64,000 nucleotides of DNA from Rhypophila decipiens (Eukaryota; Ascomycota; Sordariomycetes; Sordariales; Naviculisporaceae): the NCBI GenBank assembly GCA_033297075.1, contig MU858127.1, forward strand, positions 1 through 64,000, given 5' to 3'. The notes under the pieces were generated by a model, which did no database searches, had not been told where the DNA came from, and saw only the letters and a list, made by a program, of their open reading frames with translations. The first letter of the stretch is position 1; every line of letters starts with the position of its first letter. This document shows, in pieces, positions 11,723 through 32,869 of the stretch. A program made the translations under genes and the position numbers.

Positions 11723-12950
11723 GGTTCTGGCTATCTCCCGAGTCCTGGTTTATTCGAGCTCGGAGTACTGACGAGATTCGATAGTGGTGTGTCGCTGGAT
11801 TTTGACTGAGCGCTGGATCAGGTAGTGACGGTCTGGATATCCAGCCGGGTGGGCGACATTTTATATAGAGAGATTTGTTTTGCGCCCCCGGGCTCCATCG
11901 CGGATTCGCTGAAGGTACAATAACGCCTCGTCTTTCTTGGTCGCGCGAGGCTGACACGCGGTTGGGCTCTCGGAACGTTGGTGATATTCCGCGTGGGAGG
12001 ACAACAAAGGGGGCAGTCTTGGGTGACTCCCCGAGGACCAACAGCAAGGCACTCTGCTCGGAGTAGACAAACACAAAGAAAGAAGCTTCAGACACGACGA
12101 ACCAACTGCCAGGCTGAGTTCTGATTGTCCGGACCTCCAAGGCATAATACACACAACAAGATTTGTCCCTCAACGAATGCTATTCGAGCTTGCTCGGGGT
12201 CGCTTCTCCTTCTGATTTTCCCGAGTGTCAAAGATGTTGAAGAAATGTTGGATATCCTTTCAACGGCGCAAACATCGAGTCATTTGTTTGGCTTTACCTG
12301 TGATGAATGTGCGACCGACAAACAGACGAGGAGTAACGGGGAACCGGTCCAAAGCCCCCGACTGCTGTTTGTACGAGGCCTCTTCGGACAAAGTCTCCTG
12401 CCCGTTATGATTGATCTCCCGACTGGCTCTGGCCGTGGGTCAGGTGGCCAAACATATCTCGACCGGCGTCGGCACGGCGGCCCCTTTTTCGGCAGAACTT
12501 GGGCTTCCAGCGTATCACTCCTTTGTGATCCTTCCGATCAACTGCTTCTTTGTCGTTCAAGATTATTGGGGTCGTACGCCAGCCGTAGCTCCTGCCTGGC
12601 GTCAGGGAATGAATGAATCGATCGTGAAATGGGCTGGCCGCTGGCGACAGGGGATCCAAGGAGGATGTCGTTGCTCATTCTTTTCATACGAAGGCTCCGT
12701 TCGGTATTCGATATCTCGGCAGCGAGGGGGAATATATTTGCGATGGCATCTACTCCGCCTAAAGGGTAAGTAGCAGTCCACTGGATGTGACCACGTAGGA
12801 GGGGATGCTTTGCTTACATTGGAGAGCCTCTCCGTCTTCTCAGTTTCAAGGCTTGACCTGCAGATTGGATCCATAAATTCAAAACCGAGGCTGTTGTATT
12901 CGGCGAGAACCCTGGTTGATCGCTGATGAGATCGGTAACAAAGTACCAAG
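11723..12950. other. Non-genic or unresolved stretch
   Basis: Besides the promoter of the 10958 gene (TATATAAA at 11859-11866), this region holds long overlapping open frames on both strands that I could not join convincingly. One minus-strand segment (about 12541-12760) reads plausibly as protein (DAIANIFPLAAEIS, RQELRLAYDPNNLERQRSS) after a CTTACCCTTTAG acceptor, but no upstream exon fits in phase. Confidence 0.3.
11859..11866 (-). promoter_or_regulatory. TATA box for the 10958-11722 gene
   Basis: On the minus strand the sequence reads TATATAAA, about 140 bp before the start codon at 11722, a suitable distance for a core promoter. Confidence 0.4.
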
Positions 12951-13363
12951 ATGGTCGACGACGATGAAAATCTCGTAAACATTTAATCATCAAAAGTTGC
13001 ATGCGGAAAAGGGGGGGTTGGGAAAAGGGTAAGAAAGGCCGGCAGTACCATTGTTTCGTGTGTGTTCGATAGGCTTGCCAGATTTGTTTGGTGTCGAAGG
13101 AAAAACCGCGTTTGAAAAAAAGATTCAAGGCTCCAACCCGCGACGGCGTTCCTGCTTTCCTTCACTCAGGAGAATACACACATTTTGAAAATACACACAT
13201 TTTCAAAAGCCCAATTCATTACCCGCACCAAATACAAGTATTCTTTCCCGCTAAAAGAAGAAGCGCGTCTCATCGCACGTAAGTCTTATAAGATACTTCG
13301 GTGAATACTTTGATTGTTCAACGCTAACTGCTTTCCAGATTCACATCAGCTATCAAGCCTTGA
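12951..13363 (+). CDS. Small three-exon basic protein (about 81 aa)
   Basis: Exon 1 (12951-12974) encodes MVDDDENL and ends at GTAAAC. Exon 2 (13082-13278) follows a TTGCCAG acceptor in phase. Its GTAAGT donor at 13279, a GCTAACTG branch region and a TTTCCAG acceptor at 13338 give a near-ideal second intron. Exon 3 (13339-13363) ends FTSAIKP then TGA. The middle is rich in Lys/Arg (KEKPRLKKRFKAP) with a second basic patch (AKRRSASHRT). No known domain. The second intron is the main evidence that the locus is transcribed on this strand. Exon 1 is less certain and could be replaced by another upstream exon. Confidence 0.35.
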
Positions 13364-14640
13364 GGTCGGAGTGAAATAACTCCTCACTAGTATTCGAACT
13401 AGTTCCGCTGCCGAACCTGTAAGTTGAAGCCGTCCGGGGTCTCTTCTCTTCGAGTTATTGTCTTCCTTGTACTAACCTTGATAATTTGGACTCGGTAGTC
13501 CTTAGATACCATAATCCCTTTCTTTATACGCGTCGGGGTGGTTCTGGTGGAGGCTCTGGTCGTGTACTTTGTTTTCGCCATTTTTGCCCTCCGTCGCCCA
13601 ACTCACCGGGCACCAGATTGGCTAGTTTGGCTCCTGGCGGTTGGGCTCGAAATACTCTTCTATGGGGTGTGTCTGTGCCAGCACTTTGCGGTGCTGGTGG
13701 TGTTGCTCCAAACGATCCTCTATTGTGCGTACTGGACCTTGATGAGCCTGTGAGGACCGACGAGAATCCGGTTCCTCACACGTGAGGTTATAAAATGCGT
13801 GGTGGGATGGTGATGCTGGGGACCGGGTGAAGTGGCGATTCTTTAGCTTGGAATCATCTGGCCGATCTTGGACGTGTCTTCTCGAATGGGGAAAATAGTT
13901 GCGGTGCCCCCAATTTCAATTATAATGACTGAGAATCTCGGACTATGAGATTGTGTGGGCCGTGATTTGCGACTTCAGAGGTTACTGTTTTTTTCTCCGT
14001 GTCACCGCCAATAATCACATTCAATCGAGTGGACTTGCGTAGACCCATATTCAAAGATTTTCTTCAAGCTCTTTGATTTCCATGATGTTTTGAAATACCG
14101 GTATGTGACGTCTTGTATGGTATGTCGACTGCCCAGCTGCCAGCAACGGTTGTGTTCACTTTGTTAGCTTGCCCCACTTGAGCTTGCCTCGGGTTGGCTC
14201 CCAGTTTCAATCCATTCCTCTCCTGCGGGAATGCCTATACAGCAGTAGAATTCAGCTGGAGGTATCGCACTCACTTAAATGCCAGCCCTAGCTTTCCAGA
14301 CGAATGCCCAGCCATCAGGGTGTCCATTGAAATCCACCAAGCGACAGTACGTCTTCTAACTCGATGCCGCGAGACTAATACCCACCACGACGACCTCTTC
14401 CAACACGAGCGTTTCATCTCGCGGCGGTCGAGGGGGCCACAGCAGCAACTCGAGGCAGTCGGAGCGGCGCACAAACTCAGCTTGCTACCCAACAACACCG
14501 GAGTTTGAAACCTCTGGTCCGACCAGCTCTACCGGCGCGAAATCGACGAAACAGAGGTCCAGACGAAGGGCTAGACGACGCACCGCCCAGCTACGAACCT
14601 GTCCTTGGGGTTACACTAGAAAGAAAGAGAGACAGAGACA
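13364..14640. other. Non-genic or unresolved stretch
   Basis: A minus-strand frame starting at 13581 encodes a Lys/Thr/Arg-rich peptide and reaches a GTTAGT donor at 13476, but no long continuation exists. From about 14380 to 14560 (+) one frame reads as Ser/Thr/Gly/Arg-rich protein (SNTSVSSRGGRGGHSSNS) without start or splice support. Both could be remnants. Confidence 0.3.
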
Positions 14641-14903
14641 ATGGTCGAGTTCACAGATGAGGGGAAGAAGTGGACCGAGGTTCTTTGGTAAGGGTGAGCA
14701 CTTTCTCTCCACAGGCTATACAACTGACGACTGATCAAGCGCTTACTAGATTATACAGGGGCGCGAGCCTTCCAGACTGTTCTCTAGAACCAAGCAACAC
14801 TTCCACGAGACGCCGAGGCACGACACGGCTATCCTACTTCGAATCCACAGACCGCTTGGAGGCCCAGAGAGCGAAGCGACAGTCACTTGACGACCTGGAT
14901 TAG
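14641..14903 (+). CDS. Hypothetical two-exon small protein (63 aa)
   Basis: The start at 14641 follows GAGACAGAGACA. Exon 1 (14641-14687) encodes MVEFTDEGKKWTEVL and stops in phase 2 at GTAAGG. The acceptor ATTATACAG at 14758 continues the frame in exon 2 (14759-14903), which contains STRRRGTTRLSYFESTDR and ends RLEAQRAKRQSLDDLD before TAG. The product is hydrophilic and charged, with no recognisable domain. An open frame at 14907-15299 follows directly after the stop and could be a decayed continuation, but I see no splice that joins it. Confidence 0.35.
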
Positions 14904-17544
14904 TGAATGGACATGGAGACCTTGTACCAACCAGATGTGGCAGAGAATTACGTGCGATTGGGCCTGAAAAGACTGCAGTGCGTGCCAGACAAGCCTAACG
15001 CGGGTGTTCGCTCATCCGCATCTGGCAACACTTCAATACCAGCAACCTCGACATTTAGCCGGCGTCCTCGCAACGAGCCTCGAGTCATTCAACTCACCTC
15101 GTACAGCCAGACTCCTTCGCCCTCTGGACCCAACCAAGGTTCACAGCATTATCGTTTGACGGTAGCCAGATCAGCTACCACCTCGACTGGAAGGGTGTCC
15201 ATGTGTGGAGAAGGACCACCAAATTATACCCACAAAACAACAAGCACCCAACCGATACTTCAAGAACAGATGAAGAGGAAGGTGAGAGAGGGAGGGTAGG
15301 GCAAAAGATACATGAGAAGGGTATGAATTGATAGCTCAGGAAAATGTTCCGCACTCTCTCGCACCGCACGCACCCGACCTATACCAGAGCAATTTCTCAG
15401 GCAATTAGCAATATCGGGTCCTATACTCTACACTTTTGTTTGTTATTCGACTTGGGTATTGCGGTGAGGCTGTGGACAAAGGGGCATGGCTGCGACTCGA
15501 GCTTAGAAGCCGCTCTGTATGTCAATCGCACGTCAAGAGCAGACAGCGCCCAATATAAAAAGCTGGATTAATCAAAACAGATTGTGGTTCGGCCTACGCG
15601 ATGTGTCGGAAGGTCTTGGAAAGAAACTCACGTTGGATTTGCTTGTCAGGCTGCAGCCTCGTCAGCCTGGAGAGAGATGCGACCTCGAGACTGGGCTGCG
15701 TTTGTGGATGAGGGCAAAATTAACGTTATTCCATACCCCAGGCAATGCAAGGTTGTGGGAAGGATTAAGTCTCAGTTTGCGCCTCAAGCCACCTTACCAG
15801 GGAGGACATGGGTTGCGAATGCGCCAACACCCGATACGATCAACGGCAGCATTTAAACGTTCGACGGCCGAGGAGCCAGAGGATATCGACAATATCTCAG
15901 GATGCGCAGGCAGTTGGTCTTGTTAGCTCTTTTGGCGCATACCTCTTTGAGGTTCGATGTACGAAACGCGCGAGACGCGAAGGTCGGAAGGACAAGAACT
16001 CGGGCGCTCCCACAGCCAAGCAATGCGCCTCCTGACAGGGGGCGATCGAGCTTTGATTTCAAGCCTCTTGATTCAGTGAAAAGACCCACCCTCTCTGGTA
16101 AGTTCGAGTATTCATTGCGCGGGCCCTTGTCACTGAAACTTGGACTTCTTTTCGACGTTCTGTGCTTCTGAGCCTTCGCCTTCAAATCCCACACCAATCT
16201 GGACAATGTTTGGCGGCCATGTGGGCATCAGATTCAACAATCCAGCTTGAGATTCTGGTGCGAACATGCACTGAGCAAGCAACTGGTAGATTAGGAGAAG
16301 CTGCCAATAGAAGGATGTCATAGTCAACTGAACCGGCTTGTTGCAAGAGCCATCAATCCGCCGGCGCATGGCTCCACGATTAGCTCAGGTTGAAAGGAGC
16401 GAACTGGGGGTAGCCCTGGGGACACATGGTGACTGCGCAGCGGTTTAACAGGCACTGTAGTATATCCGTGGAAGATCAATCTACTGTTTTCAAACTGGGT
16501 TTAGGGTCAGAACGTTTCGTGAAAAAGCAAGGCCGCGCAGCTGTCAAGCAGAGGAGATGCTAAGACTTTGGCTCAGCTATCAGCAGCTGGAGTAAGGAAT
16601 GACAGTGATGACAGTGAAACTAGGAGAGTGAGGAGGACAATATGAAGAGTTTTACTTGAAATTTCTGAAATTTCCCGGTTATCTTACTCATCATAACAAC
16701 AATTTCTAAACTCACCAGAAGAGGAGTGGAAAGGTACCTTCCTGAAGCACTGAACACTCTCATCGCGCAGAGGTCTCCACGTAATCCCGATACCCCTCGT
16801 CCTCCAGAGAATTTGAAGGAATAGATGCTCAAGCGATCCATCCACTTGTTTCAGGATGTAGCGAATAGCCCTGTTCAAGACAGGGGTGTGTGACAGGCAT
16901 CAACATGAGGCTTGAACGAACGGAAGCTGTCAAAATATGCAGCACAAGGCCACAAAACCAAGCCTATGTTCAAACTCACACCAACACACCACCAGGGCTT
17001 GGAAGTATCTTTTAAAATAATAAATATTTATACCGCAGGCTTTAGATGTCTTGAAAACTTTGGTGGTCTTTTTACCTCATGTATGGATCAAGAAAATGAC
17101 TTGATATATAGGCAAGCATTCGACATGACGAGGCCACAGTTGTACATCTTCACTCAATCAACATACGCTAACGGCCTGCAGAAACAATAGTAAATCCACT
17201 TTCACTGACAAAAGTGTCAATAGTTCAGACGATGAAGTAGCAACGCTGGGAAATCTCATGTATAAATATCTCATATGTGCTCCGTTTCGTGAACTTGTTG
17301 CTCTTGTCTTCTTGTCTTCAACCCTTCACTGCATCTTGCTATCGAACGCATACCAGCTCGTTGATACAAACACTTTTATATATCTTCAGCACATAGTGCT
17401 TGAACACTTGTCACCCGCAGTTAGAAGAAGGAGTGTGGCTCCGCGGCCCACTTGGTTCTTTGGTCACAGTACCATATATCTATTTAAAATACTCGATATC
17501 ACCCCCCCTCTCCTCCTTGCGGACCCGTACCCACCAACCCAACA
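14904..17544. other. Long gene-poor stretch
   Basis: No supported gene. Two weak leads: an unjoined frame at 14907-15299 (+), and a frame at 15902 (+) starting MRRQLVLLALLAHTSLR, a possible signal peptide, that reaches a GTAAGT donor near 16097 without an obvious next exon. From 16600 to 17480 the sequence is AT-richer and featureless. A TATTTAAA box at 17481-17488 belongs to the next gene. Confidence 0.35.
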
Positions 17545-18508
17545 ATGGCTGTGCCCCTGAGCCAGCAGATGCGCTCGGCAGCCGAGCTGACCATTGGCGC
17601 GGTCCGCGACGCCGTTCACCTCGCGGTGAACGATATCTGGGCAGCCGCCGATCCGACCAACCCAGGTCGTGATCTGACCGGCAACCTTTTGGTGGAGCCG
17701 CACCGTCTCCTCGGCGTCATCATCGCCGCCTACGGCACGGTTCACCCCAGACCCGACCGACCGTCCGTCCGCGCCCTCTCGAACCAGCTTGGCGGGGAGT
17801 GTGTCCTCTTCCTCGGCCTCGCCTTCACCACCAACGAAGTGGCGTCGATGTCCTGGCCAGTCTATCTCGAGCTGTTCAGAATGGTGCGAGAGCAGGTGCC
17901 GGTCTTGCCTCGTTGCTGGTTGTTCCACCCGGCGATTGTCAGTGTCCTTTTGGACCTGAAAAGTCCTCAGTACCGAGGCCTCTATACTGAGTTTCTGAGC
18001 TGTAGGTTGATCTCCTCGTTGCTTCAAATGTTCTGGCCCATCACCTCCTATCCGTTACTCGCTCTTTCTCATCGGCACACTTGAGCATCTGCCCATGGTC
18101 TCTTCCCACCGCCTCAACTCAACGTTCTCATATCCAACTTCACTCCCTGAACAGAGTTATATCAGCAAATAATAATCAATTCCAGCAACATAATAACATT
18201 GAGCGAAAAGGGTACAATGTCCAAGCTAGGCAGCGCCACCCGTGCCTCCGGCCACCACCGCCACCAACCAGCCCTCCCCCTCCGCCACCACCACCTCCCA
18301 GCAGCGCGACCGGCCTGCCCCGCGGCATCAAGCGGGAGCGCTCGGCCTCCCCTGCGGCTGGTCGTCCTGGTCCGCCCCGCGCCATCAAGCGGGAGCGTTT
18401 GTCTCCTCCGCGGCTTGCCCCGCCGCCGTCTTTGCCCCGGCCCCTGCCCCCGCCGTCAAGGTCGAAGAGAAGAAGATCAAGAAGGAGGAGGAGAATGAGG
18501 ATGAGTAA
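17545..18508 (+). CDS. Paralogous family member 1, acidic-tailed protein (243 aa)
   Basis: Exon 1 (17545-18001) ends in phase 1 at GTAGGT. A 232-bp intron with acceptor AGGCAG at 18233 leads to exon 2 (18234-18508). A TATTTAAA box lies about 60 bp upstream. Exon 1 encodes a helical domain with GGECVLFLGLAFTTNEV, WPVYLELFRMVREQVP, CWLFHPAIVSVLLDLKSPQY. This aligns by eye with PELFIFL-x3-T-x-FH ... W-x-F-x2-NI-x2-VI-x-R in the genes at 19318 and 22392, and the intron falls at the same place and phase. Exon 2 is Pro/Ala/Ser-rich and ends KVEEKKIKKEEENEDE, an acidic tail like that of the 19318 gene. The intron acceptor is weak, and part of exon 2 also reads as good protein in another frame (see findings). 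Function unknown. Confidence 0.55.
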
Positions 18509-19317
18509 AGAGTCGGAGGACGTCTTGTCAAGAGAGGGTGTGTCCAGTCCTGCCTGTCTTTTTGGTGTTCGGCTTTGGCTTCGTCTGCCTTATTTCGGTC
18601 TCGGTTTGGTTCGGTTTCGATTCGGATTTCGGAACGTTTTGGTATTCTGCCGCGGTTCTTGTTTGGCTTGAATTGATGTGGTTCTTTCTGGGCGTGAAGG
18701 TTGGGTTTTGGTATCGTTCGGAGTTGTTGGTTGGTCTTGCATTGTGGTGCTGGTTTGCCTGCCTGCGAGTTGTTTGAATTTGATTCTTTTCCTCGTTTTT
18801 GTTTTCAAAGCCGTGCAAATATCGTTCTGTGACCACTCTGTGCCTACCAATTTCCCCATGTAGAGAGCTGAATCTCCAAGCCTTGTAGCTCGCCTGGTAT
18901 TTTCCTGTATGTCCCATCTGCTAGGTCTGGTACGGGGGTGCCTCTGGAATACGGTATCGGGGCCAAGGAGACACACCCACGTGAAAGCAAAGCATTGACT
19001 GGCCCTCCTTCCTCCATCCAATATTTCTACCCAATCCAAACCGACGAGGGCTGCCCTGGCGGGGCACCTTTGCCAGACCCGCCCTGGCCATTTTCAGTAA
19101 GCCTGGATCCCTAGGGTTGACCTGGGACTAACGAGGCAACACAGCCCAAAAGCCTGCTACAGCTCAACTGGCAATTCAACCCCACAGGACTCCTGTGCCG
19201 ACCCAACAAGAAAGTCAACAAATCGCACACAACTTTGCCAACCATTTCCCACACAACAGAAACCAGCCCAAGCCTACCAAATTCTCTTGAAACGGTCTCG
19301 ACTACGTATCCGTCGAA
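18509..19317. other. Intergenic
   Basis: No gene seen. From about 18560 to 18780 the plus strand is strikingly G/T-rich (repeated TTCGG, GGTTTT, TTGTTTGG), as in a 3' untranslated region. The last 120 bp are a CA-rich leader of the next gene. Confidence 0.35.
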
Positions 19318-20068
19318 ATGCCAGGACATGACACAAAATATAACACAGAACCAAAACCCACCGGGGCCAGTGTCACCCGCCAAAACACCGCCCAGATCCG
19401 CGACAGATTCTACACCTACATCGCGAACCAACCCCTCGAGATCATCGAGCGCAACCTAGGCGGGCTAATTGACTTGGCCTTTGGCACCGAGCCATCATCA
19501 TCATCCTCGCGCGGAAGAGCTCTCCTCCGAGAAACGGGCACAAGCAACCCGGAGCTATTCATCTTCCTAGCCCTCACCCCATTCCACGTCCATCCAGCTA
19601 GACAAAAGGAAATGACGGGCAATTACTTTGACGACTGGTATTGTCGTGACGCCATCGACGCTGCTGCTAAAAAGTTTGCCGCCACGACAAAAGGTCGTCG
19701 GCGCGATTGGACATTTACCGACAATATCCGGGCCGTCATTGAGAAGAGAGCCTCCCTAGTTGAGAGTTTCATTCCCTTTGTAGACGGTTAGTTTATCTTG
19801 TTTCCTTGAGCTGTGATCTTTTATGAGCTGTGTGGAATGACCGAACGGGCAAGGCTAGTAACTAACTTGGAAATGATCCTTCTCTCTTCTAGCTTGGAAC
19901 TATTTGCGATTCGGTGAGGTATACGACGTAATTCGACGGGCATTGAGGCCGAAAACACACTTCGACCAAGATTCGAGGTTGATGAGGGCGGATCTCAAGG
20001 CACTTGGCAGGGAGGAGGAGGAGACGAGTGATGGGGAAAAGGAGACAAGTGAGAGGACGAGGAGATGA
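19318..20068 (+). CDS. Paralogous family member 2 (214 aa)
   Basis: Exon 1 (19318-19786) and exon 2 (19893-20068) are joined across a 106-bp intron with GTTAGT donor, ACTAAC branch and TTCTAG acceptor, phase 1. The family core is clear: EIIERNLGGLIDLAFG, then PELFIFLALTPFHVHP, then a W/D/F-rich segment (YFDDWYCRDAIDAAAKKFA), then WTFTDNIRAVIEKRASLVESF. Exon 2 continues WNYLRFGEVYDVIRRALRP and ends in an acidic/basic tail (LGREEEETSDGEKE, SERTRR). There is no signal peptide or transmembrane span; the protein is probably soluble and intracellular. This is the cleanest member of a four-gene family in this window. I do not recognise it from a characterised family. Confidence 0.7.
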
Positions 20069-21690
20069 GTGATGGGGAAACCCCCGCTAGCACCTTTTTC
20101 AGCTATTCCTCGCTAGAAATCTCGGTACCAAACGGTGTGGCCTCGTTCGGGCCTAGTCTCTCCGTCGTAAGCTGGGACATGAGCTAGGAGGATGAGAAGA
20201 AGGATGATAGACTGGTGAGAAGCTTATTGTACACAAGTTACTCTCCTAGATCAATTACTACTCATTGACCCAGCACCCATACCCACTGGTTTTGACTTCT
20301 TAACACGGTGCATGGCTGAAGTCAAAGATGTTATTGCCGGAATATTGGGCAAGGCTGATGGTATCCGAGCCTATTTGCCAGCAGCAGATTGTTCGTTTTC
20401 CTTTTCAATAATGTATCACTGTGGCAAGTTTAAGTAGAGTTGAAAGGAATCCTTTGATTATTCAATCAATGTTGAGAACCCGCCAGCTACTGAAGGTTCG
20501 AAAGCTTGTACTCAACACCTTCTTACTGGCACCGGAAAGGGGATTAATACCAAGCAAGTTCTTTGATTCTCTACTACATTGAAGTAAATTCAAGACCTGG
20601 GTTTAACCTCCCATGCCAAGCCTAATGCTGAGATGCATTGTCGACTGGGCTGCTTGCGAAGATGTCCCACCCTTGGGCGCAAAAGAGCCGTGTTGGGCAC
20701 AGAGCTGGAGAGCCCGAGCTGAAGGTCTAAGGAGCTAACCGCTCAACCACTGAACCACACGCCAAAAGATGACTGCAATCACCGAAAGGCGTGTTCGGCT
20801 CAGTGGTATATATGGCTTCGTCCCCACAGAAGGTTTCTTTGCGCCTCCAGCGGCGAATGAAACCCGAGACTCGACAGACCAGGCAACCACGCTCTCCCAG
20901 ACAGAACCTCGAGTTCGAGCCTTCTTGCAGCTTTTCGCCATTCTTCCCAGATTCACATGCGTGATGTAAAGCCAGCGCTGAATGGCTTGACTCTCGTAAA
21001 CTGGCTTCATACTCTCGAACCTTGTCCTCCCCTTGATCACCAATTATCAGTGGCACCCGGTATCCGTTGATCAAGAATAGGAAGGACCTTTGGCAGAGCA
21101 CTCAAGGTTCCTCTCCTCCCGCCGACGGGTTGCAGGGCTCGCTCATCAACCCAGAGCCCTAACATCCACCTGTGGAACTGGGGCGCAGCGACTTTGAAAA
21201 ATATCCTTTTTTTTTTCTGACCTGATGGTCGTGTTGGTCTTGTGGAGATCCGGTAGTCGGTTGTTTGCCATTGTCGTGTGCGTATGGGCGATGAGTGGAA
21301 GGCTGTTCAGTTTGATGCAGAGTTGCGATCGTTGCTGTCGACGGCACGATGGTTGGACTATTTCTGGCCATTTTCGAATAGTATGTTAGCTTACAGACAC
21401 CAACTGCTGAGGATTAGATGGCGAAAAGGAGCATTACTGACCGAAAGTCCAAGACGAGCAACTCAGAGGACGATCTTAGGGGTTGCTACAGATCCTAAAT
21501 GGAAATGGCCAAATGTCGGCTCTCTTCGCAGCCATTGTACTCGTCGTCGTCATCGGGATCGATGCGATTAATTATCATGACGCGAGGTTCCGGTGGTGCC
21601 GCTCATGGTGTCAATGTCTGAGAGGTCGTCAGAAAGGGACGGTGGGCCCGATCTCACGATGAGAACAGTCGGAGAAGGTCGGCTGCTTAC
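20069..21690. other. Intergenic with divergent tRNA-like A boxes
   Basis: No protein gene supported. At 20740-20815 two motifs resembling tRNA A boxes sit back to back: TGGTTCAGTGGTTGAGCGG on the minus strand and CGGCTCAGTGGTATATATGG on the plus strand. A B-box-like GAGTTCGAGCC lies at about 20911-20921 (+). The spacing is too wide for a tRNA, so a tRNA-derived SINE remnant is possible. Confidence 0.3.
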
Positions 21691-21999
21691 TGCATAATTA
21701 GGATGCACTTGAGCTGGGTTTTGGGGATTCCAGCCATGTTCTAAGAGAATGTTAGGACGGATCTCAAACAGATGGGAAGTGGTGGGCGGATGACGACTGA
21801 CGATAGAGTTGAATGATTGTAAGGGATCAATCAACAAAAGAGCGTTCATCAAACAACGAACAGTGTGCCCCTCGGCCAGCAGCTGCGCTCTGGCCTCAGC
21901 GCTCAAGCATCACGGAGAGATGGTGAGAAAATGGTTTGTGTTGCCCAAAGTGGAGGTAATGACCGGAGCATCCGCGGTGTAGAAGGCGGAAGCAGTCAT
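21691..21999 (-). pseudogene. Decayed two-exon small gene with an internal TGA
   Basis: On the minus strand an ATG at 21999 opens MTASAFYTADAPVITSTLGN. The frame meets TGA at 21912-21910 and continues in the same frame as LSAEARAQLLAEGHTVRC and ALLLIDPLQSFNSI. There a GTCAGT donor, TCCTAAC branch and TCTCTTAG acceptor join NMAGIPKTQLKCILIM (exon 2, 21691-21740), which ends at a GTAAGC donor. The good internal splice signals and protein-like composition on both sides of the stop suggest a once functional gene. The stop could come from CGA by one C-to-T change. The 3' exon is not resolved and no family is recognised. Confidence 0.35.
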
Positions 22000-22391
22000 C
22001 TTGAAAGACCGAAATCAGTTCGGCACAGGCACACCGGGACCTGTCATCCGCTGTCACTGTGGGCACCCGACTCCAGAGGGGGGTCACGTCAAGACTGTAA
22101 TCCGCTATAGGGACCTTCAGGACAGAGGGGTGACCAACACAGCCCCTGCTCAGTGACGCAGGAGGGGCAGCCTCAGTCGGTCCCTTCTCCAGCGCCCAAT
22201 GACTTTCAAAATCAAACCGCCCTCCCTATGCGACTAGAAGTTGCCGTGCTTTTCAGTGCAAAACACTACACCCTCCCTCACAACCATCACCACTGCTAAT
22301 TCAAAAATCAAACTTGCTTTCTACGCCTCACTCTTACAGTCTTCGCGACACATAGTTGCGTTCCGTACCCCTTTCTACACCAAACTCAGCA
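22000..22391. other. Upstream region of the 22392 gene
   Basis: Nothing coding. The last 150 bp form a CA- and CT-rich leader (CACTACACCCTCCC, CACTCTTACAGTC). Confidence 0.35.
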
Positions 22392-23122
22392 ATGTCTTCC
22401 GCAGAGGAAACGCAAGCCTTGATCGACAGACTCGAGCTCCTGACCCTCGAGTTCCAAGCATACCACGAGGCAAAAGAGCAGATCCCTCGCAGTGAGGACG
22501 AGTTGTACAAAGAACTCGAGCACAAGCAACTAGCCCTGCGAAACGTCGTAGACCACAGCCTCGCCAGCTACTCGGTCGGCGAGCAGAGACCTTTCCTCTC
22601 CCTGGGTGAAGAGGTCGTCGTCCCAGACGACTTTTACGACCAGTTCGCCAAACACCCGGTGCACGCGGTGGAGCACGACCTCGGCGCGCTGATCAACTAC
22701 ACCTTTGCGCCGCCGCTTCCCGAGACTCTCGGAAACGAGGACACGCGCCAGAAGCAGCGGCGTTTCCTCGAGGTCACTGCCGATGAGAGCCCAGAGCTCT
22801 TTATTTTTCTGTCCTTCACCAGGTTCCATACCAAGCCTGACATCCGGTTGAGCGACGACTTTTACGATTTCGGCTACTGCGACTTTGCCATCTTGCAAGC
22901 CAAGCGATTCCTGGCTCGCACAGCCGATGAGCGCCCGCGAGGCTGGATTTTCCACAAAAACATCCAGCTCGTCATTGCGAGGCGGGCTGATGAGCCGAGA
23001 TTTGTCCAATTTCGAAAATGTAACGCTTCTCCTTCTGTCGCTTTTGAGTCTAGGACCTATTTCTGACTTATTTACTTCTTTGATTAGCCTACCACCTCCT
23101 GGAATTTCAAACCGATGTTTAG
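22392..23122 (+). CDS. Paralogous family member 3 (220 aa), possibly truncated
   Basis: Exon 1 (22392-23019) ends in phase 1 at GTAACG. The acceptor TTTGATTAG (23087) leads to exon 2, which stops after 11 codons at TAG 23120-23122. The N-terminus has a helical region (LIDRLELLTLEFQAYHEAKE, LEHKQLALRNVVDH). The family core follows: AVEHDLGALINYTF, PELFIFLSFTRFHTKPD, WIFHKNIQLVIARRADE. The intron sits where member 2 has it, in the same phase. After the early TAG, the same reading frame opens again from about 23285 to 23542 into an acidic then Gln/Ser-rich tail (EEEDDDDNDNAAQRQP), which resembles the acidic tails of members 1 and 2. The native protein may have been longer, either through an unrecognised intron or before the stop arose. 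Confidence 0.6.
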
Positions 23123-24784
23123 AACAAGTCAAGCGCTCTTGAACGCCTGTCTAATCGGAGAACTCTCTGGTCGTATGCCTTCTTCGCCAGGCATTCCGAT
23201 CGGTCTCTCGCTTGATGAAGACGGCATATATTTTTGCTGGGTCAGGGATCGTAGCCGGGCTTTGGTGCGGTCTGGTGAAGGGAGGGCCCCGAGGAGGAGG
23301 ACGACGACGACAATGACAACGCGGCGCAGCGGCAGCCCGCCTCTTCCACTGCCGCCAACGATGACGCCACCACGGGCAGCGGTGGGGGTGGGTTGTTTGT
23401 CTCGCCTCGCCGAGAAGAAGAAGTAGAAGAAGCGCGGCAGCGGCAGCAGCAGCACCAGGAGGGGGGGAGAAGCAGCAGCAGCAGCACCAGGAGGGGGGGA
23501 GGAGCAGCAGCAGCAGGCGCCGTATCGGAGCAGAGCTCATAGGTGCTCCGGATAGAGTTAGGTGCGCGCCGAATGGAGCCTGAGCCTATCCCTGCTTGCT
23601 AGACGGCAAATCATCCGAGTTGCTCAGTCCATCCTCCTGAAGATGATTCCATGTTGGAGATAGGGCCCAGGATTCACACTTTGGTTTTCAACGCAGGTTA
23701 GGGGGATGTTGTGAAGCTGGCGCAAAGCGCGAGATGGGAAAGCTGGAGAGCCCCAAAACACGAAAAGAATTATTCAGTTGCGGCTCAGGAGCCAGTACGG
23801 CAGCAGCTAAAGCCATATTGCACCTCCTCCACGGTGGAGGAAGACATCCAGTCCGTCGACGGAGAGGCTGTCCGTGCTGGAGTCATTGGCAGCTACGGAG
23901 ACGGTTCTTTCACAGTTTCACTACATTTTGACTTTGGAACTTGGCATCCGTGGAATGCAGTGGTGCTGGGACACACAGCCAGCACCTTGGCCAAGGCTGA
24001 GGTTATAATAAGGGTATGACTAGGCTAACTATTAGCTTCTGCCGTGCTCGCGTCGGACAAGCTTTTCATGCATCCCAGAGCAGTTATGGTACTGAGTGTC
24101 AGAAGACTTAGGACTCGCTTTGACGAGAGGGTTCATCTCATCCAGTTTGGGGTTGAAGAAAGAAAGGCAGGGAGAAACATGTAGGATGTGAGGCCCGTAA
24201 ATGCGAGCAAATATCATGTCGTCCACTGCCTGGTGAAAGGTCATGTTAAAACTTAAGGCCCAGGATATAAACGGTGTTACCTAGTCTTTTGGGGGAACAA
24301 AATACAGGGTGTCTATTAGGCAGGTAAAGCTGCTGATATTAGCTTTAAGCTGAGGGTCAAAACAAGCTGCCATGCTGTCATAAGATTGTCCATGATATCG
24401 AAGTTTTCTCAAGATTCAAGTGCATGGAAAGCGCAAGACTGCACTTACCTACCATCTATAGGACGGTCTCCCTCCCAATATCCACTCTTCCTGGACCAGT
24501 AGCCTTCTCAGCACAGTATGATGGTGAAAACTGGCGTGTCTGATGTTGATCAACGGTTATGAGATGGTTAGAAAATCCACGTAAATGGAAATTCTACATA
24601 ATTGGAGATTGTGTAGATTCAAATAGCTAGTCTAGGAGAAGACGATATGGTGACATGGACCTTAACAATCTAGAAAGGAGTAACAAGAGAAGAACAAATA
24701 AACTTGTGTTGTACATGTAACCAAGCCCAATGTCTGATGTGATAAGGAATAGGAACGAAACACCCTTCCCCCCCCCCCCCCCCC
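23123..24784. other. Intergenic with low-complexity and family remnants
   Basis: 23285-23542 is the open acidic/Gln-rich extension in frame with the 22392 gene and contains two copies of an AGCAGCAGCACCAGGAGGG block. At 24032-24244 (-) a short frame (VDDMIFARIYGPHILHV) is vaguely like the family core. A homopolymer of 17 C lies at 24768-24784. Confidence 0.35.
24768..24784. repeat. Poly-C tract, 17 bp
   Basis: An uninterrupted run of 17 C on the plus strand, just beyond the 3' end of the recognisable part of the minus-strand pseudogene. Such runs are prone to slippage and to assembly error. Confidence 0.85.
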
Positions 24785-25502
24785 GATATGCCGGTGGGCT
24801 AAAACATCTGCTTGCGGTGTTATGCGGCTGGTTCTTGATGCCTTTATCACCGGAGAACTGCCCGTTTATCGTGTGGAATTGAGGGTCCCACACGCAAGTC
24901 ACCCAACGATCGTCATCCATCTTGGCGCGAAATCGCGAGAGAGACAAGTAGATGAATATGTATGGATGAAGCTGGTAGAGCATTGCTTCCTTCGGCCCTG
25001 CCAGACGAGGGTGTTTGGCTTAACCAAACACAAAGTCGATCATTTTCCCGAGACCCTTTTCCACATACTCGGGAAAACATGGGTCGGAAGAAAAAGCGTC
25101 GCGCTCTATCACAAACGATGTATTAATGAGGGAGCATTTCGTCATCCCTGGAGAAGCGAGAATGAACTCGGTGGCTTTGTCATGAATCTCCTTGGTTAGA
25201 TCGTCTAACGCAGCTGAATCCAAAAAGCCCCCTCGAGTTGGAATCTCGTCGCGCAGCTTCAAGGCCTGGTCGAGTGTAGACTTGACATTTTCCAAGGCAC
25301 GCCAAAGTTGGACTTTGGCGTTGGGAGCGTCTGGATATTCGATGAGTGCATTGTTCGCCATTGTAAGCCTGGAAAACCGAATAGGCGGTCCAAATTCGAT
25401 TGAACCGGTTTTCGTGGAGTTGTCAAAGGGATCCAGGCGGGCGTGACTGTTTTGATATCTTTTCGCAAAAACGCGTGGGGAAGGACTGTTGAGTGTTGAC
25501 AT
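24785..25502 (-). pseudogene. Paralogous family member 4, interrupted by TAA
   Basis: The frame starts at ATG 25502 (MSTLNSPSPRVF). It has the family's helical N-terminus (LWRALENVKSTLDQALKLRD) and the motif EYVEKGLGKMIDFVFG, which matches EIIERNLGGLIDLAFG of member 2. It then meets TAA at 25022-25020. The same frame continues without a shift into AKHPRLAGPKEAM, HPYIFIYLSLSRFRAKMDDD and WDPQFHTINGQF, the counterpart of the PELFIFL ... FH ... W-x-F core. One nonsense change therefore splits an otherwise aligned copy. Further 3' the frame runs into a 17-bp poly-G (minus strand) and loses similarity, and no equivalent of the conserved second exon is seen. A 5' untranslated intron is possible (GTAAGC near 25534). 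Confidence 0.6.
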
Positions 25503-28500
25503 TGCTTTTGGTAGATCCACAGTGCCAGCTTACCGCGTTCTTAGGGGTACCCTATCCCTGCCCGGGCACGTCCTCTGCTGTACCTGTACTTACTGTAAGC
25601 ACTGTATCGATGGCCCCTGTTCAGGGGTACTTGTAGCGTCATTAGCCAAGTCAACACCCATCAATTCTGCTATCATATGCTCTGCGATAACGGATATGTC
25701 CGTGGTCCTGACTTGATGGTTTTCGTTGATTGACAACATCCAGTACTGGAAATGGAGGTATGAGTTAGTCCGTGAACGGTATTTTAGGAGTCAATCATCA
25801 TGATTCAAATGCTCTTGAGCAAAACATTGTTGGGAATATCCTCTAAGAAGTTAGAACTTCAGTCATTTCCCCTAGAGAGTGAATATGTTCATGACTGGGT
25901 ATATTTAAAACATTGATGTCAATATCCAAGCGTACAGTTCAAAGCGAATATGTACGATGATGGAATCCAGCCCATTACGGTATAACGCGTTCATTGTTAC
26001 ACGGGTGGGACTGAAAACTACAAGACGATGAGAATTTCCCGGGCTCAGAACCTGGGAGGAGATGCACGTGATGTACTTTAGGAGAGCTAAATAGGCAACC
26101 GGAATTCAGTTCATAGAGAGTGTCAATTCCTACTCAAATGAGTGGAGCGGCGAGGATCCCCAATGCTTCTTGCATTTTCTGATTGAAAGGCCATCGGGCG
26201 AACCACTTCAAGCTGGGTCGACGGGACGGGCAGCAGCACTAATACCTTCCTTCCCTCGTCACTTTTGTTCAGCGCTTTCCGGTGAGTCTCTTCGAAGCCT
26301 AGAGCTTGATGGCACCAGATTGGATGGATGCCACATTTGATACGAGCACAACGATACTAGTAGCCGGCCGGCTCTAGGGCCTGGAAAAAATCACAGATTT
26401 ATACACCATGTCATTGAATTCTTGCTAAGAATAGAGCAGCAGGAGAATCTGCTTCTGTTATCCAATCAAAATCAAACGCTATCTTGTTTTGGTCTCCAGC
26501 GCGTCAATCTACAGCCTCTCCCTCCACAAAGAAATCGTGGACAGATCGACAAGCCTCAACAATCTTCTTCAGCTTAAATCATTGGATTCCTCATGATCGA
26601 CTTGATCAAGTAAACCAAACAAATCAGACCAAAAACGGACGCAAAACTTACAGGAGCAGCGAAGGGGCGTCGCTTGACAAGTTGGGCCGAGTCAGCTAAT
26701 TACGCGCAAGACGTTCGTGGTAAGAATGGGCCTGAGCATTCTTCTCTACTAGCTTCCACTCAAACCAATGGACTAGTTTGATGCGCTCCTCTTCAACTTG
26801 GCTAGGAACTGACGCCAGAGTCCCTCTGCTTTAGATCCTTGCCCGTCTGCCCGAGCCGCCCGGTCCCAACTTCGAGACCAGATACTGCTGGCGACATCAG
26901 CGCAAGAACGATCCGGGCAACGAGCGTCTAACAATTGAGAGGAAGGCAGTGGTTTCACATTCTTGGGCTTGTTTCTGTTCCTTCACCACTGGGCATACTC
27001 TCCCTATTCCCCGTTTGCTTCTTCGGCACGGACTCCCGCCGTCAAATTGGGCTATCTCGCAAGCCATAGGCCCTACATTAGACCGATTCACGTCCAATAC
27101 AGGGGGGGCAAAGTTGACTTGACTTGGCTTCTTCGGAATTATGTTTCAAGAGGCGCATAACGTCGCGGTTTATCAAAGGGGACGAAGACGATCAAGCCAT
27201 CCCCCCGCGATCCAAACAATCCCGAGCAACTACTTCCGGAAAGACTCAACAGAGGCCTGGTCTGAGGATCCAGCACCGCAGGCAGACCTTTCTCTCTCGG
27301 CGACCACCATCTTTCCGACGTCTTCATCGATATGCAAGACATTCAACATAGTGGGCCGCTCTTCCACCAGGCCATTGCGGTGGCTCTGGTCCCGGTGCCT
27401 CAAACCAGGACTCGGTTGTGTGTGTAGGGAGTCTGGCGCGGCCCGGAGAAGGCGAAGGGGCGCGCAGTCGCAAACCCGCGACCCGCAGCCTCTTGGACTG
27501 CATGTGGAGGAGATGGGCAGGGCGGGGAGGGTGACGGTGATAAAGGCGGCATCAAAAGGAAAATGATTGAATGGTCGCTTTGTGGCCCTGTGTGGCAACG
27601 TCTTGGAGGGGCTGATGAGATGATGGCCGAGATGGTCTGCTGCATGTCTAATTGGCAATAGTAGAAATGGAATTTGATTATGAGTGTTATATTTCTACAT
27701 GCGCCTCGTTGTGATTTTGTGCCTCTCCAGGGTGATTTGGAAGTTGACGGACATGTGGAGCGAGACGGAGCCAACATCGGGAATGATGGACTGCATGGAT
27801 TGCATTCTCCATAGGTCGGATCATAACCCCGTCGAAGGTAAGGACTATCGACGGCGCGATACAGACAATCAATATAGCAGCCTCAACTGGAAGTGGAATG
27901 AAAGAGGTGGATTTATTTATGAAATTTCATATCTTCATGGATAGCTACATAACAAATATCCCAAGTCCTCGTCATAACGTTCCGTCGAGATTCTTACATA
28001 TCCTTGGACTGTGTTTCCGGAACGAGACCAACCAAGAAAAATTAAAAGACGCGATACAGATATAACATGATAATAAGAAGGGAAGTCAATACCATAAACA
28101 GGAAATCCAAAAAGAAAATATGAGATCCAAAAAGCCGAGTCCTACTCCAGACCACCAAAAATATAAGTCCTAGGCCAGAGAAGACCACCAACAAGCTGTT
28201 ACAGGGCACAAAGGCCACAATGGCCATTGGTAGCCACTTCCAGGCATCAGGAGATGCAGCACACCCACTTGCGCATATATATGCCCTGCGTTGGCCCCAG
28301 TCAGTCAGACAGATTCCATAGGCGAATCCACAGATACATCCCTGACACAAGCTGATAGCCGCCCGGAGCCACGTCTCCCAGGTCAGACCAGACTAGACCA
28401 GACTAGCAAAGGGCATTCCTACTCGCGCATCCCCCTTTTACTGCTCTCATATCCCCCAAAAGGCGGCCCCCTCCTCCAGACCAGACTAGACCAGAGTACC

Positions 28501-28772
28501 AAAGGCCGGCCGGGGACACCACGCGTTCACCAGAGAGGAAGTCGGAAGAAGAGATCGGAGGTCGTAAGCGTATAGGGCTTCCCGGTTGAGACATCTAGCT
28601 GCCGCAGTTTGGGAATTTGGGGCCCAAATTTGAGCTGGGCTCCTGCCAGAAATGGCGTGTTGAGAGTGGATTGAAAGAAAAGAGATGAACAGAAAAGACT
28701 TGGATATGAATATCCCACAAGCACTTCCGAGGGGTAGAATCGTCTCCAGCTGCCCCACCAACACCGACAGAC
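25503..28772. other. Long gene-poor stretch
   Basis: 3.3 kb without a supported gene. Around 27140-27560 frames on both strands look partly protein-like but carry no start, splice or motif support. A short direct repeat CAGACCAGACTAGACCAGA occurs at about 28383 and 28477. Nothing else stands out. Confidence 0.4.
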
Positions 28773-30475
28773 CTAATGACTTCTCTTGGTGATGCGGACC
28801 CACAGGTTCCGGATAATAGCTGTGACGTAGTATTCGACATCCCAGGGCTCGCAAGAGTTGGTAATCTGTAGGTCGAAATCCCGAAGCAGCTAGATAGCAA
28901 ACGCGACACCAACATGTTAGCACGACCATCGTCCGTAGGCATGTTTCAATCTTGGTACCTTACCTCAAAAAAGAATTTGCTCAGCTCCATAAAGGCAATC
29001 ACCTTGCCTGCGCACATGTATCGCCCGTGCCCAAAGATCAGCTCGACGTCTTTCTCCATTCTGCCACGCTCTTTCTCCCCGCCGGCCTCCATGAATCGTT
29101 CAGGGCGAAATGTCTCTACATCGTCACCGAAAACCTCCCTATTACGCATCAACCCCCAGATGTTGACACTAATTCTGGTTCCCGGCGGCACGAAGTGGCC
29201 TTCAAGAGTATCGCCTTCTGGGCCAACAACTTTGGTTGAGAGCAGTTTGACCGAGGGTTGAACACGGATTCCTTCGTATATGACGGCCTGGAGATAGGGC
29301 AGACGTTGGGCCTCGGCATACGATATAACTGGGGCAGACGCTTTCCCTTGCGCAACAGCCTCGTCTATTTCGGCCTGCAACTTCTTGTAAACATGGGGCG
29401 TCGTGAGGATATGAAACAAGGCACAGCGGAGCGTGCCTCCCGTGGTCTCGGATCCAGCTAGCAGAGTAAGTGATATTTCCGTCTCGCACTGCTTCCGAGT
29501 GATGCCATGCCTTATGAAGGATCCCTTTCATAGATCGAAAGAGTTTTGTCAGAGACGGTGACCAGCGTGTGGACTCAGTGGGGAACCAACTTACCAACAT
29601 ATCTTGCTTCTCGGCTGGGTTTTCGAGATCGAACCTCTCAGAGACAACTTTCTTTGCCTGCCTATTGGCGGTCAGAATCCGAGGACTTGGATCTCACAGA
29701 AAACTCTTGTTCGTACTTACCCAGAGACGTATCCCAATCCGGCAGCGTCTGTCTCCTTTGGACCCATCAGCCGAAGCATGGGCTTACTGAACATGATTCT
29801 CCTCAGCGGCGGGGTCTCGGCGCATAGTGTGCCAAAGCGAGCGAATTTAGTCGAGGCATCCACGAAGCCACGGATGTCATCATCCGCCTTGATGTGCCCC
29901 CATTCCTCTCCAAAGGACAACTTAGTGATAGAGTCCATCGTAAACCAAGGAATTGCCCGCGACATATCCATGGGCTTGAAGCTCTTGGATGTAGAAAGGT
30001 ATTTCTCCCGAATGAGGCCCTTGAACGCCGTAAGTTGCCCGTCAATGTCCGCCTCAAATGTTGGTACTGCCTTTCCAGCATACCCGGCAGCTGTCTTTGA
30101 CTTTAATTGACTGTGGAGTGCCTCGTCCAGGGTAGAGAACATGTTGGGATTGTCGGGATCTGCACCGAGAGCTGCATACATCTCATCGCGCGTGTAAACA
30201 GAGCGGGCAGCGTTGATATGCCGAATTATCGTGGCCGAGCTTGTTACGAGGTCGTTGGGTCCAATTCGGACAAGAGGACTGTTGTATTTGGCTTGAATGT
30301 GCTTGAGAATTCTGTGCGACGTTCCAGATACAACAGTTTTGGCAATCCAGAGGTACGAGATGGATGCCAGGAAAGGCCCGGGAATATGGCGTAAGCGGTA
30401 CCAAGACCTGAACGTCGAGATCAGGAAATATGCTACGGCAGCCAGCGCTGCCGACATGAGGTAGGAGATGGCCAT
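28773..30475 (-). CDS. Cytochrome P450 monooxygenase (499 aa, four exons)
   Basis: Exons on the minus strand: 29721-30475, 29595-29661, 28964-29524 and 28773-28889. All junctions have GT-AG ends and keep phase. The N-terminus is a membrane anchor (residues about 2-22) followed by the RHIPGPFLAS hinge, so the enzyme sits on the ER facing the cytosol. I-helix AGSETT is near residue 297, the K-helix ExxR is EGIR (about 358-361), the PERF region is FRPERF, and the haem loop is FGHGRYMCAG with the ligand Cys near 445. The length is normal for a class II P450. The IPGPFLAS and RIGPNDLVTSS segments resemble the pisatin-demethylase/CYP57-like and related fungal groups; the substrate cannot be read from sequence. 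It stands alone: no PKS, NRPS or terpene synthase is nearby, and gene-poor DNA lies on both sides. Confidence 0.93.
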
Positions 30476-32869
30476 GCTGTGAGCGTTTGGAACTTCTCGC
30501 CCAGTTACTGTCGGTGTGGCACGTGGGTGTCGTAGAAACTGGAAACTGGAAACTGGTGAACCTCCTCGCAGAGCCCCTCGGTCCCTTTTTATTTGCAAAG
30601 ACGGGCAATGTCACTCTGAGGGACATTGGTTTTGAAATGGCCTATGCTGAAAGGAATTCTGCCGTGGATGGTTGCAGGAAGCTGCAGATGTGGTTTCCCG
30701 GCTCCCCTCATCGTCCACCAAGCAGGGCAATCGTCTGACGGAATGCAGCCAATGAGATTCAGCGATGTGCTTCTATATCAGAAGGAAGGGTATAAGTACC
30801 GCGCAGTCAAACTATGATTCGTTGCCCCGCCTGCCGGCCTGGTCGAGTGGGTATCAATATTGGATTTGGACTTGGGTGTAGTGGCGTCGTCGAATCGTCT
30901 TCAAGTATAATACGCAGGTTTGCCTTATCTCATGATCCAAGACAAATTGACTGATCCTATGGTGCTTGGGCCTTTGGTATCCCACGAAGGCTTGCCGCGG
31001 CGGCCGGCAGAACGATGCGGTGCAGGTGTAGGTGCAGGATGTTGTGTAACGTCCATCGGCTTGCATCTCTCGAGTTCCAATCAACACTCGCCGTGCAGAG
31101 TACTGTGCGTGGGTGTTGACCCTGGGCCACTTATCAGTACATCTCGCAAGCTGGAATGGTTGCACCTCAGTCCTCAACAAACTTCAAATTCCGCTGGTGA
31201 TGCCACCATCGGGGTCGGGCTACTCGTATTCGGAGTCGTGATCATAGCACCGACAAGGCAGTGAGGAGAGCCAATTGATGTCTAGGTATGCTTAATCTAG
31301 CAGATGCGGGCTGATGTGCGACTGGAGGCTGGGCCTAAGTTTGCATCTGCACAAGGTGGGACACTGTTGGCAATCTCATCCTTTTCGCTCTCCTTGACTA
31401 AATAGGTCAAAGGGAGCATAGGGAGAACCTGCAGCAGAAATATGCGCACCTTTCGCCAAGATAGTGTTCGGGAGGTGTCAAGTGTGACGTCGATAAACCA
31501 TCAATTCGTCTCGGTGGAAGAAAAAGATTGACGGGCCAGCCTGCCAGGAATACACAAGTGACGTTTTGGATGTCGCTGAGCCTGATATGGTTGTCGAGAG
31601 ACTTTAGCGGTCAGCATCCGCGCGCTCCTCTTCCTTTTGGCTGATTCGTCGTCGACGAGATAACACCAGAAGCTTGTGCTCACATCTAGATGGTACTTGA
31701 TCGCTCTGTACGTCCAACACGAGGCCGCCCGTAGGGTCCCGGGAGACGAAAATGCGCATTGTGGCTGGGGTGTCGTTGACGGTTGACTCCTCAGGGACGG
31801 AAATTATGGAAATGGAAGAAGCGAGGTTAATGAAGTTCTCCGTAAGGCTTGGAGTCCGTGTTGAACTTACGGAGAACACTTGTGGTCCACTTCCTGGATT
31901 GGAAGTATTTCGTATCGATAAATACCGTGACCCAAGTAGAAAGATTTGGGTTCTAATGCTGTAATGGCGCTTTTCAGTGACGAGAGTCTGACGGGTCGTG
32001 GAAGTCTGGACATGTGCGGGACAAGCCTGCCAGAGTTCATTGGTACGGACACTGGTTTAAGTCGAGGCTCATCTGTGAGTGGGAAGGAGCGCAGTTTTCG
32101 CTGTGGAGAATGCGACTTCAACATGTAAACCAAAGAGGGCGCATGGAGCTTTCAAGGGGCAAGTCCCACCTGTCGTACAAGCAACCGAAGATAGAAAATT
32201 CAAAATTGGCTGGGTGAATCTCAGTCCACGAGTAGAGGAATGACAGTTTTGCTTGCTGGGAATATCTTGATAACCCTCAGGGAGGTTTGCTTCAGTGCCT
32301 TGCATTCTCCCCTTGATCTCACTCATAACCCCAACCCTAAGATGGATTTCTGGGCAACACAGCCAACACTATATTGAGTTATACCATTACAGCCCAATTA
32401 TCATTATGAGATTTGAACACCAACCAACGTTGAGGCACATCCAATATCGCACATCCCATACATGTAGGCACCTCAAATACCTCGTAATGACCTTTTGTTT
32501 TGGGGATAACCAAGCAAATCGGGCGACTGGGCAAAAGTGCATCTGGCCGCTGGAATAAGCACTGATACTGGCAAGGATGCTGAGCTGACAGCTGCAAGAC
32601 CGTTTGAATTTCTGACCAACGGGCCAAATACAGGCTAGGGCCCCGCTTTTAGCCTCCCTTGTCAGCACCAAAAGCGAACCAAAGTTCATCTGGCACAACT
32701 TTTCAACCTCCGCCACTACCGAGGACCGATCTAGGTAGACTCTCCATCATTCTCACGACAAGTCGGCTTCGCCCCTAGCCGATGATATTGCCGTTCTTTC
32801 GCGCTCATAAAATCTCTTGCTCAAATCAAACGCTACTCTGCTTTTGATTGATATCCACAATTCGAAACC
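30476..32869. other. Gene-poor stretch
   Basis: No firm gene. On the minus strand, frames from 32326 down to about 31604 contain a possible donor (CC|GTAAGT near 31867) and protein-like pieces (MSEIKGRMQGTEANLPEGY, SSLKSAITALEPKSFYLGH), but I could not build a consistent model. 32700-32869 is the leader of the PP2C gene. Confidence 0.35.

What the first reader, a model, noticed from the sequence alone, without database searches (positions are those of the whole stretch)
17545..25502. Unrecognised four-member paralogous family clustered in 8 kb
Genes at 17545, 19318 and 22392 (+) and the pseudogene at 24785-25502 (-) share a core by eye: a helix ending LG-x-LI-[DN]-x-x-F, then PELFIFL-x-x-T-x-FH, then W-x-F-x-x-NI-x-x-VI-x-R, followed by a phase-1 intron in the same place and an acidic tail. 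Member 1 is the most diverged. One member has a clean TAA, another an early TAG. Local duplication with decay, and no obvious match to a known family, suggest a lineage-specific gene family under birth-and-death evolution. Such families in fungi are often linked to conflict, incompatibility or effectors, but nothing here shows that directly.
Basis: partly seen in the sequence, partly recalled or inferred. Interest (0 to 1): 0.75.

Follow-up and report, generated by a model that had tools for sequence, protein, structure and literature searches.

The report
Genus-restricted fungal orphan gene cluster
A dung fungus carries a small cluster of related genes that resemble no known family; one copy looks conserved in sister species and another is broken, an ordinary young gene family whose job is unknown.

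Summary
The window is Rhypophila decipiens (member 2 = QBC37DRAFT_401497). Paralogy is certain for 19318 and 22392 (E 1.7e-15) and well supported for the broken copy at 24783-25502 (0 of 5000 shuffles), which lacks the claimed third motif. The 17545 gene is doubtful: 62 of 5000 shuffles match its profile score; anchored at its annotated intron, 9 of 6000 shuffles and 2 of 8241 decoys do. The phase-1 intron is annotated in members 1 and 2, inferred in 3, untestable in 4. No Pfam match above cut-off, no further genomic copy below E 0.3, relatives only in Rhypophila at the search's limited sensitivity. If V8F06 is strain CBS 256.69, member 3 is strongly constrained (5 amino-acid changes; 23 expected neutrally); a disabling change is shown only in member 4. 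Nothing seen supports conflict or effector roles: no signal-like N-terminus, no listed HET gene on the contig (capped). AlphaFold models were unusable. Most likely an intracellular, genus-restricted orphan family.

The parts
17545..18508 (+). Member 1: exon 1 17545-18001, phase-1 intron 18002-18233, exon 2 18234-18508 with low-complexity tail ending VKVEEKKIKKEEENEDE; = QBC37DRAFT_401496 (P0005)
   Evidence: Public model mapped to the window; membership weak without, moderate with, intron anchoring
19318..20437 (+). Member 2: exons 19318-19786, 19893-20048, 20274-20437; = QBC37DRAFT_401497 (P0002), 262 aa
   Evidence: 100% match and exact exon mapping
22392..23122 (+). Member 3: open frame 22392-23066 (unspliced, 224 aa), or exon 1 22392-23019 spliced to 23088-23122
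   Evidence: E 1.7e-15 to member 2; relatives P0003 (98%) and P0004 (88%); intron test
24783..25502 (-). Member 4: broken copy, in-frame TAA at 25022-25020 between core segments 1 and 2; third segment missing
   Evidence: Profile made without it: 0 of 5000 shuffles; no public relative found
19393..19755 (+). Shared core in member 2
22617..22991 (+). Shared core in member 3

Best explanation
A small gene family restricted, as far as searched, to the dung-fungus genus Rhypophila. It arose by local duplication of a gene for a cytosolic or nuclear protein with a core of about 125 residues followed by a phase-1 intron and a variable tail. Member 3 is the constrained, retained copy; member 2 is an intact diverged copy; member 4 is a pseudogene; member 1 is a probable far-diverged copy. 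Shown: homology of members 2, 3 and 4, the stop in member 4, no further copy in the genome below E 0.3. Shown on one inference (V8F06 = CBS 256.69): constraint on member 3. Inferred: intracellular location, and that the core is a protein-binding helical module with the tail as a disordered modifier (about 0.3 for that mechanism).
For: Members 2-3 E 1.7e-15; member 4 0 of 5000 shuffles; member 1 with intron anchor, summed score, 9 of 6000 shuffles and 2 of 8241 decoys; phase-1 introns in the public models of members 1 and 2; member 3 in two other Rhypophila gene sets; 5 differences versus a neutral mean of 23.3, 0 of 5000 simulations at or below 5, using ANI 95.20% between PSN293 and CBS 256.69 (PMC12734299 Table 3, passage); no strongly hydrophobic N-terminus; best 19-residue KD mean 1.55, 0.98, 0.76 and 1.11 for members 1, 2, 3 (P0003) and 4 (part before the stop).
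Against: No fold: both AlphaFold models are poor (mean pLDDT 38.6 and 40.4), so the shared-fold test was neither passed nor failed, and the helical reading rests on nothing firm. Member 1 fails the unanchored tests and its anchored score against member 2 is ordinary. Members 1 and 2 were not found in the gene sets that hold member 3, which may be real absence or missed annotation. That V8F06 is CBS 256.69 and QBC37 is PSN293 are inferences from labels. 4 of the 5 changes between member 3 and P0003 are on the window's side, too few to show relaxation but in that direction. No expression data seen.
Confidence: 0.65

Rival explanations
1. Self/non-self or conflict genes: the cluster takes part in vegetative incompatibility or acts as secreted effectors, and its copies turn over under diversifying selection.
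For: Local copies, one broken, no known domain; in Neurospora most lineage-specific genes near telomeres cluster with HET genes (PMC10684091, abstract and section 16 seen).
Against: No signal-like N-terminus by a crude hydropathy test; none of the listed HET matches is on this contig, though only 150 of 266 candidates were scored and the list is cut; member 3 looks conserved between species; no HET or NACHT domain in the 24 window peptides scanned (not every ORF of the window was scanned).
Confidence: 0.08
2. Only three genes are related; member 1 is an unrelated orphan that happens to lie beside them and to share an intron phase.
For: Unanchored tests weak (62 of 5000 shuffles; p 0.011-0.67); anchored score against member 2 ordinary (547 of 8241 decoys, 578 of 6000 shuffles; 36 of 400 shuffles).
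Against: Anchored score against member 3 reached by 0 of 8241 decoys and 1 of 6000 shuffles; summed score by 2 and 9; same strand, adjacent, same intron phase, the split codon 28, 26 and 25 residues after the tryptophan of W-x-F in members 1, 2 and 3 (counted).
Confidence: 0.35
3. Distant branch of a known protein family that the available searches cannot see (compatible with the best explanation except for its restriction to the genus).
For: The protein search requires shared exact words; no deep alignment could be built, so no usable model.
Against: No Pfam or NCBIfam match above cut-off; the PDB hit QCR6 (E 0.014) weakens to 0.21 when member 4 is left out of the profile, and looks like chance.
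Confidence: 0.25

Closest known systems
Neurospora lineage-specific genes (Wang et al. 2023, PMC10684091)
   Same: Genes with few or no domains, lineage-restricted, clustered and often duplicated, in a member of Sordariales
   Different: There clusters aggregate near telomeres and with HET genes; here no telomere repeat at the contig start and no listed HET gene on the contig (capped)
Public gene models QBC37DRAFT_401496 and _401497, V8F06_002817, V8F33_012523
   Same: The first two are members 1 and 2 themselves, the others relatives of member 3; the three names printed in full read 'hypothetical protein'
   Different: Not linked as a family by any name seen; the relatives of member 3 are annotated without the shared intron, and V8F33_012523 with an N-terminal extension

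Membership tests
Single paralogous family (members 1-4) | Significant similarity of members 2 and 3 | tested here: met
   E 1.7e-15 and 2.0e-15 in the whole genome
Single paralogous family (members 1-4) | Member 4 matches a profile built without it | tested here: met
   13.8 bits, E 0.0034, 0 of 5000 shuffles; read across its stop with X
Single paralogous family (members 1-4) | Member 1 matches the same profile | tested here: inconclusive
   0.9 bits, 62 of 5000 shuffles; intron-anchored 9 of 6000 shuffles, 2 of 8241 decoys
Single paralogous family (members 1-4) | Phase-1 intron at the same place | tested here: inconclusive
   Annotated in members 1 and 2; inferred for 3, 777 of 92806 decamers as good, not spliced in public relatives; region missing in 4
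Single paralogous family (members 1-4) | Shared fold | tested here: inconclusive
   Models of members 2 and 3 too poor; members 1 and 4 not modelled
Fungal secreted effectors | N-terminal signal peptide | tested here: not met
   Crude hydropathy test only: best 11-residue KD mean among windows starting in the first 30 residues -0.32 to 1.19
HET-domain incompatibility genes | HET domain in the protein | tested here: not met
   No Pfam domain above cut-off in members 1-4
HET-domain incompatibility genes | HET gene nearby | tested here: inconclusive
   None of the listed HET matches on C83, but 150 of 266 candidates scored and list cut
HET-domain incompatibility genes | Allele-specific cell death on fusion | not testable with these tools
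   needs strains

The most novel reading that the evidence does not exclude
A previously undescribed protein family, perhaps with its own fold, born within Rhypophila, with one copy already under strong purifying selection while its siblings diverge or die: a case where a young gene's rise to an indispensable role could be followed species by species in the newly sequenced Naviculisporaceae genomes.
Probability: 0.15. Interest if true: 0.55.

Novelty: new member of a known kind. Interest (0 to 1): 0.3.

Why it matters
Lineage-specific genes are common in fungi and mostly unexplained. This cluster gives a set (one constrained, one diverged, one broken, one doubtful copy) in a family for which 25 strains have now been sequenced (PMC12734299, abstract and passages seen), so the fate of young duplicates can be followed. 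It does not change any known system.

Tried and rejected
AlphaFold on single sequences of members 2 (P0002) and 3 (exon 1) gave mean pLDDT 38.6 and 40.4; I ran no fold search on them because matches would mean nothing.

RIP as the cause of decay: rejected. The composite index is negative in all 19 one-kilobase steps from 12001 to 31000 (4 of 128 steps over the whole window exceed 0.01).

Homology of the N-terminal halves of members 3 and 4: not supported (749 of 5000 and 1884 of 5000 shuffles as high); with the core included, 11 of 3000.

PDB hit QCR6 (E 0.014): taken as chance, 0.21 without member 4. Acidic ribosomal P2 for member 1 (E 0.0058; Pfam Ribosomal_60s E 1.5) covers the acidic tail and is taken as compositional. 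Pfam ATXN-1_C for member 1 (15.1 bits, cut-off 24) and NCBIfam PRK10225 for member 4 (13 bits, cut-off 442) are below cut-off.

Dispersed copies: none below E 0.3 with members 1-4; two places for member 1 and one for member 2 (E 0.3-0.8) were taken as noise. A 46-residue piece of the member-1 tail found only itself.

The intron-anchored test was first run with 400 shuffles (member 1 vs 2 36, vs 3 0) and repeated larger. Its 8241 decoys are overlapping 60-residue windows of ORFs of 180 aa or more in the window, coding or not, so they are not independent. In one search the printed P0004 column was off by one position; the three-way comparison is taken.

Not in print: full-text searches for QBC37DRAFT (0 papers), three locus tags, 'Rhypophila orphan' and Naviculisporaceae (17 papers, all through the family name), and Rhypophila decipiens (4 papers). 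Supplements and closed journals were not searched.

Full report
Where it is. The window is contig C83 bases 1-64000 of a 45.7 Mb, 408-contig assembly. Member 2 is QBC37DRAFT_401497 (100% over 98% of my query, whose last residues came from a different 3' model) and member 1 maps exactly to QBC37DRAFT_401496 of Rhypophila decipiens, a dung fungus of Sordariales, Naviculisporaceae (habitat from PMC12734299 passages). The genome published under that species name is strain PSN293 (same passages); that QBC37 is PSN293 is my inference.

What holds. Members 2 and 3 find each other at about 2e-15 in the whole genome; the only other place is a match of member 2 at E 0.4. Shuffle tests: score 176 against a shuffle maximum of 56. 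Member 4 scores 60 and 59 against members 2 and 3, with 0 and 1 of 2000 shuffles as high, and a profile made from members 2 and 3 plus the P0004 relative gives it 13.8 bits, 0 of 5000 shuffles as high. Taken singly, its open pieces after and before the TAA rank 4th and 9th of the 1388 peptides searched (1387 window ORF pieces plus the read-through of member 4), with E 0.35 and 5.6. The piece after the stop holds segment 2 but not segment 3.

Member 1. Without help from the intron it is not firmly distinguishable from noise: p 0.029, 0.011 and 0.67 against members 2, 3 and 4, 62 of 5000 shuffles against the profile, and not in the 20 best window peptides printed. Its annotated phase-1 intron splits the 28th codon after the tryptophan of W-x-F, against the 26th in member 2 and the 25th in member 3 (counted; the member-3 site is inferred). 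With the intron sites tied together, its last 60 residues against member 3 outscore all 8241 decoys and all but 1 of 6000 shuffles; against member 2 they do not stand out (547 of 8241, 578 of 6000); for the summed score 2 decoys and 9 shuffles do as well. The decoys are overlapping windows of long ORFs. I take member 1 as probable, not proven, at about 0.65.

The intron. Mapping the public proteins back gives introns 18002-18233 (phase 1) in member 1 and 19787-19892 and 20049-20273 (both phase 1) in member 2. In member 3 the donor GTAACG at 23020 and the first acceptor give SYHLLEFQTD against AWNYLRFGEV of member 2; 777 of 92806 stop-free decamers of the window score as high, and none of the other 18 acceptors tried gives a positive score. 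The two public relatives of member 3 read straight through to FESRTYF or FKSGNYF. So the TAG is conditional.

Constraint. Member 3 differs from V8F06_002817 at 5 of 224 positions. In the comparison with P0004, 4 of these 5 changes are on the window's side and 1 on the V8F06 side. If V8F06 is CBS 256.69, the other sequenced strain labelled R. decipiens, the genome-wide identity is 95.20% (PMC12734299 Table 3), and 5000 neutral simulations at 4.8% gave a mean of 23.3 changes, a minimum of 9, and a stop in 3242. On that inference member 3 is under clear purifying selection within the genus, which speaks against decay of this copy. No 100% match to member 3 was listed; the window genome's own protein may be inside the two-member cluster of P0003 or may not be annotated.

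Distribution. Three protein searches scored 679, 7995 and 1698 candidates and returned 1, 3 and 1 proteins, all from Rhypophila; P0002 is in two of the lists, so four different proteins in all. Members 1 and 2 came only from QBC37, relatives of member 3 only from V8F06 and V8F33. This patchiness may be gene content or annotation. The search needs exact shared words and capped its candidates, so 'genus-restricted' is a statement at that sensitivity.

P0004. The V8F33 (PSN 637) model of 409 residues has an N-terminal extension: residues 146-186 match window 21264-21386 (39 of 41 residues), and residues 72-129 resemble the exon-2 tail of member 1 (score 61, 1 of 5000 shuffles as high, 2 of 5000 when the tail is shuffled). 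So in that species sequence like the member-1 tail lies within one gene model upstream of member 3. Either member 2 is missing or skipped there, or the tail is a second copy. I did not see that genome.

Surroundings. Left of 28 kb the four ORFs scanned outside the cluster have few domains: DUF7726 at 4251 and a double zinc ribbon, barely over cut-off, at 5863; none in 8940 and 10958. To the right lie ordinary genes: P450, PP2C, a Zn2Cys6 regulator, a phosphoribosyltransferase-like ORF just under its cut-off, an oxidoreductase-like domain, LRR; others have no match. No telomere repeat at the contig start. The region is not RIP-mutated. Of the HET matches listed for the genome, none is on C83 (150 of 266 candidates scored, list cut).

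Mechanism. By a crude hydropathy test the proteins have no signal-like N-terminus; the most hydrophobic 19-residue stretch is in member 1 (KD mean 1.55 at residue 118). I judge an intracellular protein with a helical binding core and disordered tail most likely, with low confidence, because no usable model exists. Conflict roles are not excluded but nothing seen points to them.

Verdict. A real but ordinary finding: a young, local, apparently genus-restricted family with three supported and one probable member.

Noticed in passing
window 3255-3579 and 7281-7622: Dispersed repeat of about 325 bp with 43-49-bp terminal inverted repeats and an internal 22-bp minisatellite, MITE-like; 486 candidates, 40 scored, 125 matching stretches in the genome; two inverted copies, 76% identical, flank the DUF7726 and zinc-ribbon ORFs.
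   Followed up: partly
window 18314-18505: The member-1 tail carries IKRER repeats in one frame and, in the annotated frame, HQAG repeats and VKVEEKKIKKEEENEDE; the annotated frame may not be the ancestral one throughout. The K-x-E pattern resembles a SUMO site (recalled, not tested).
   Followed up: partly
window 21264-21386: 123 bases upstream of member 3 match the PSN 637 protein P0004 at 95%, more than member 3 itself (87%), although no gene is evident here.
   Followed up: no
window 21658-21840: Matches C19:302384-302562 of the same genome at 85%: a further repeat.
   Followed up: no
window 21864-21890: 27 bases 89% like the start of member 1 (17550-17576), E 0.08 in a window self-comparison: relic or chance.
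   Followed up: no
window 8940-10127 (+) and 10958-11749 (-): Two ORFs with clustered cysteines (CNKC, CDQC) and no Pfam match, further candidate orphans.
   Followed up: no
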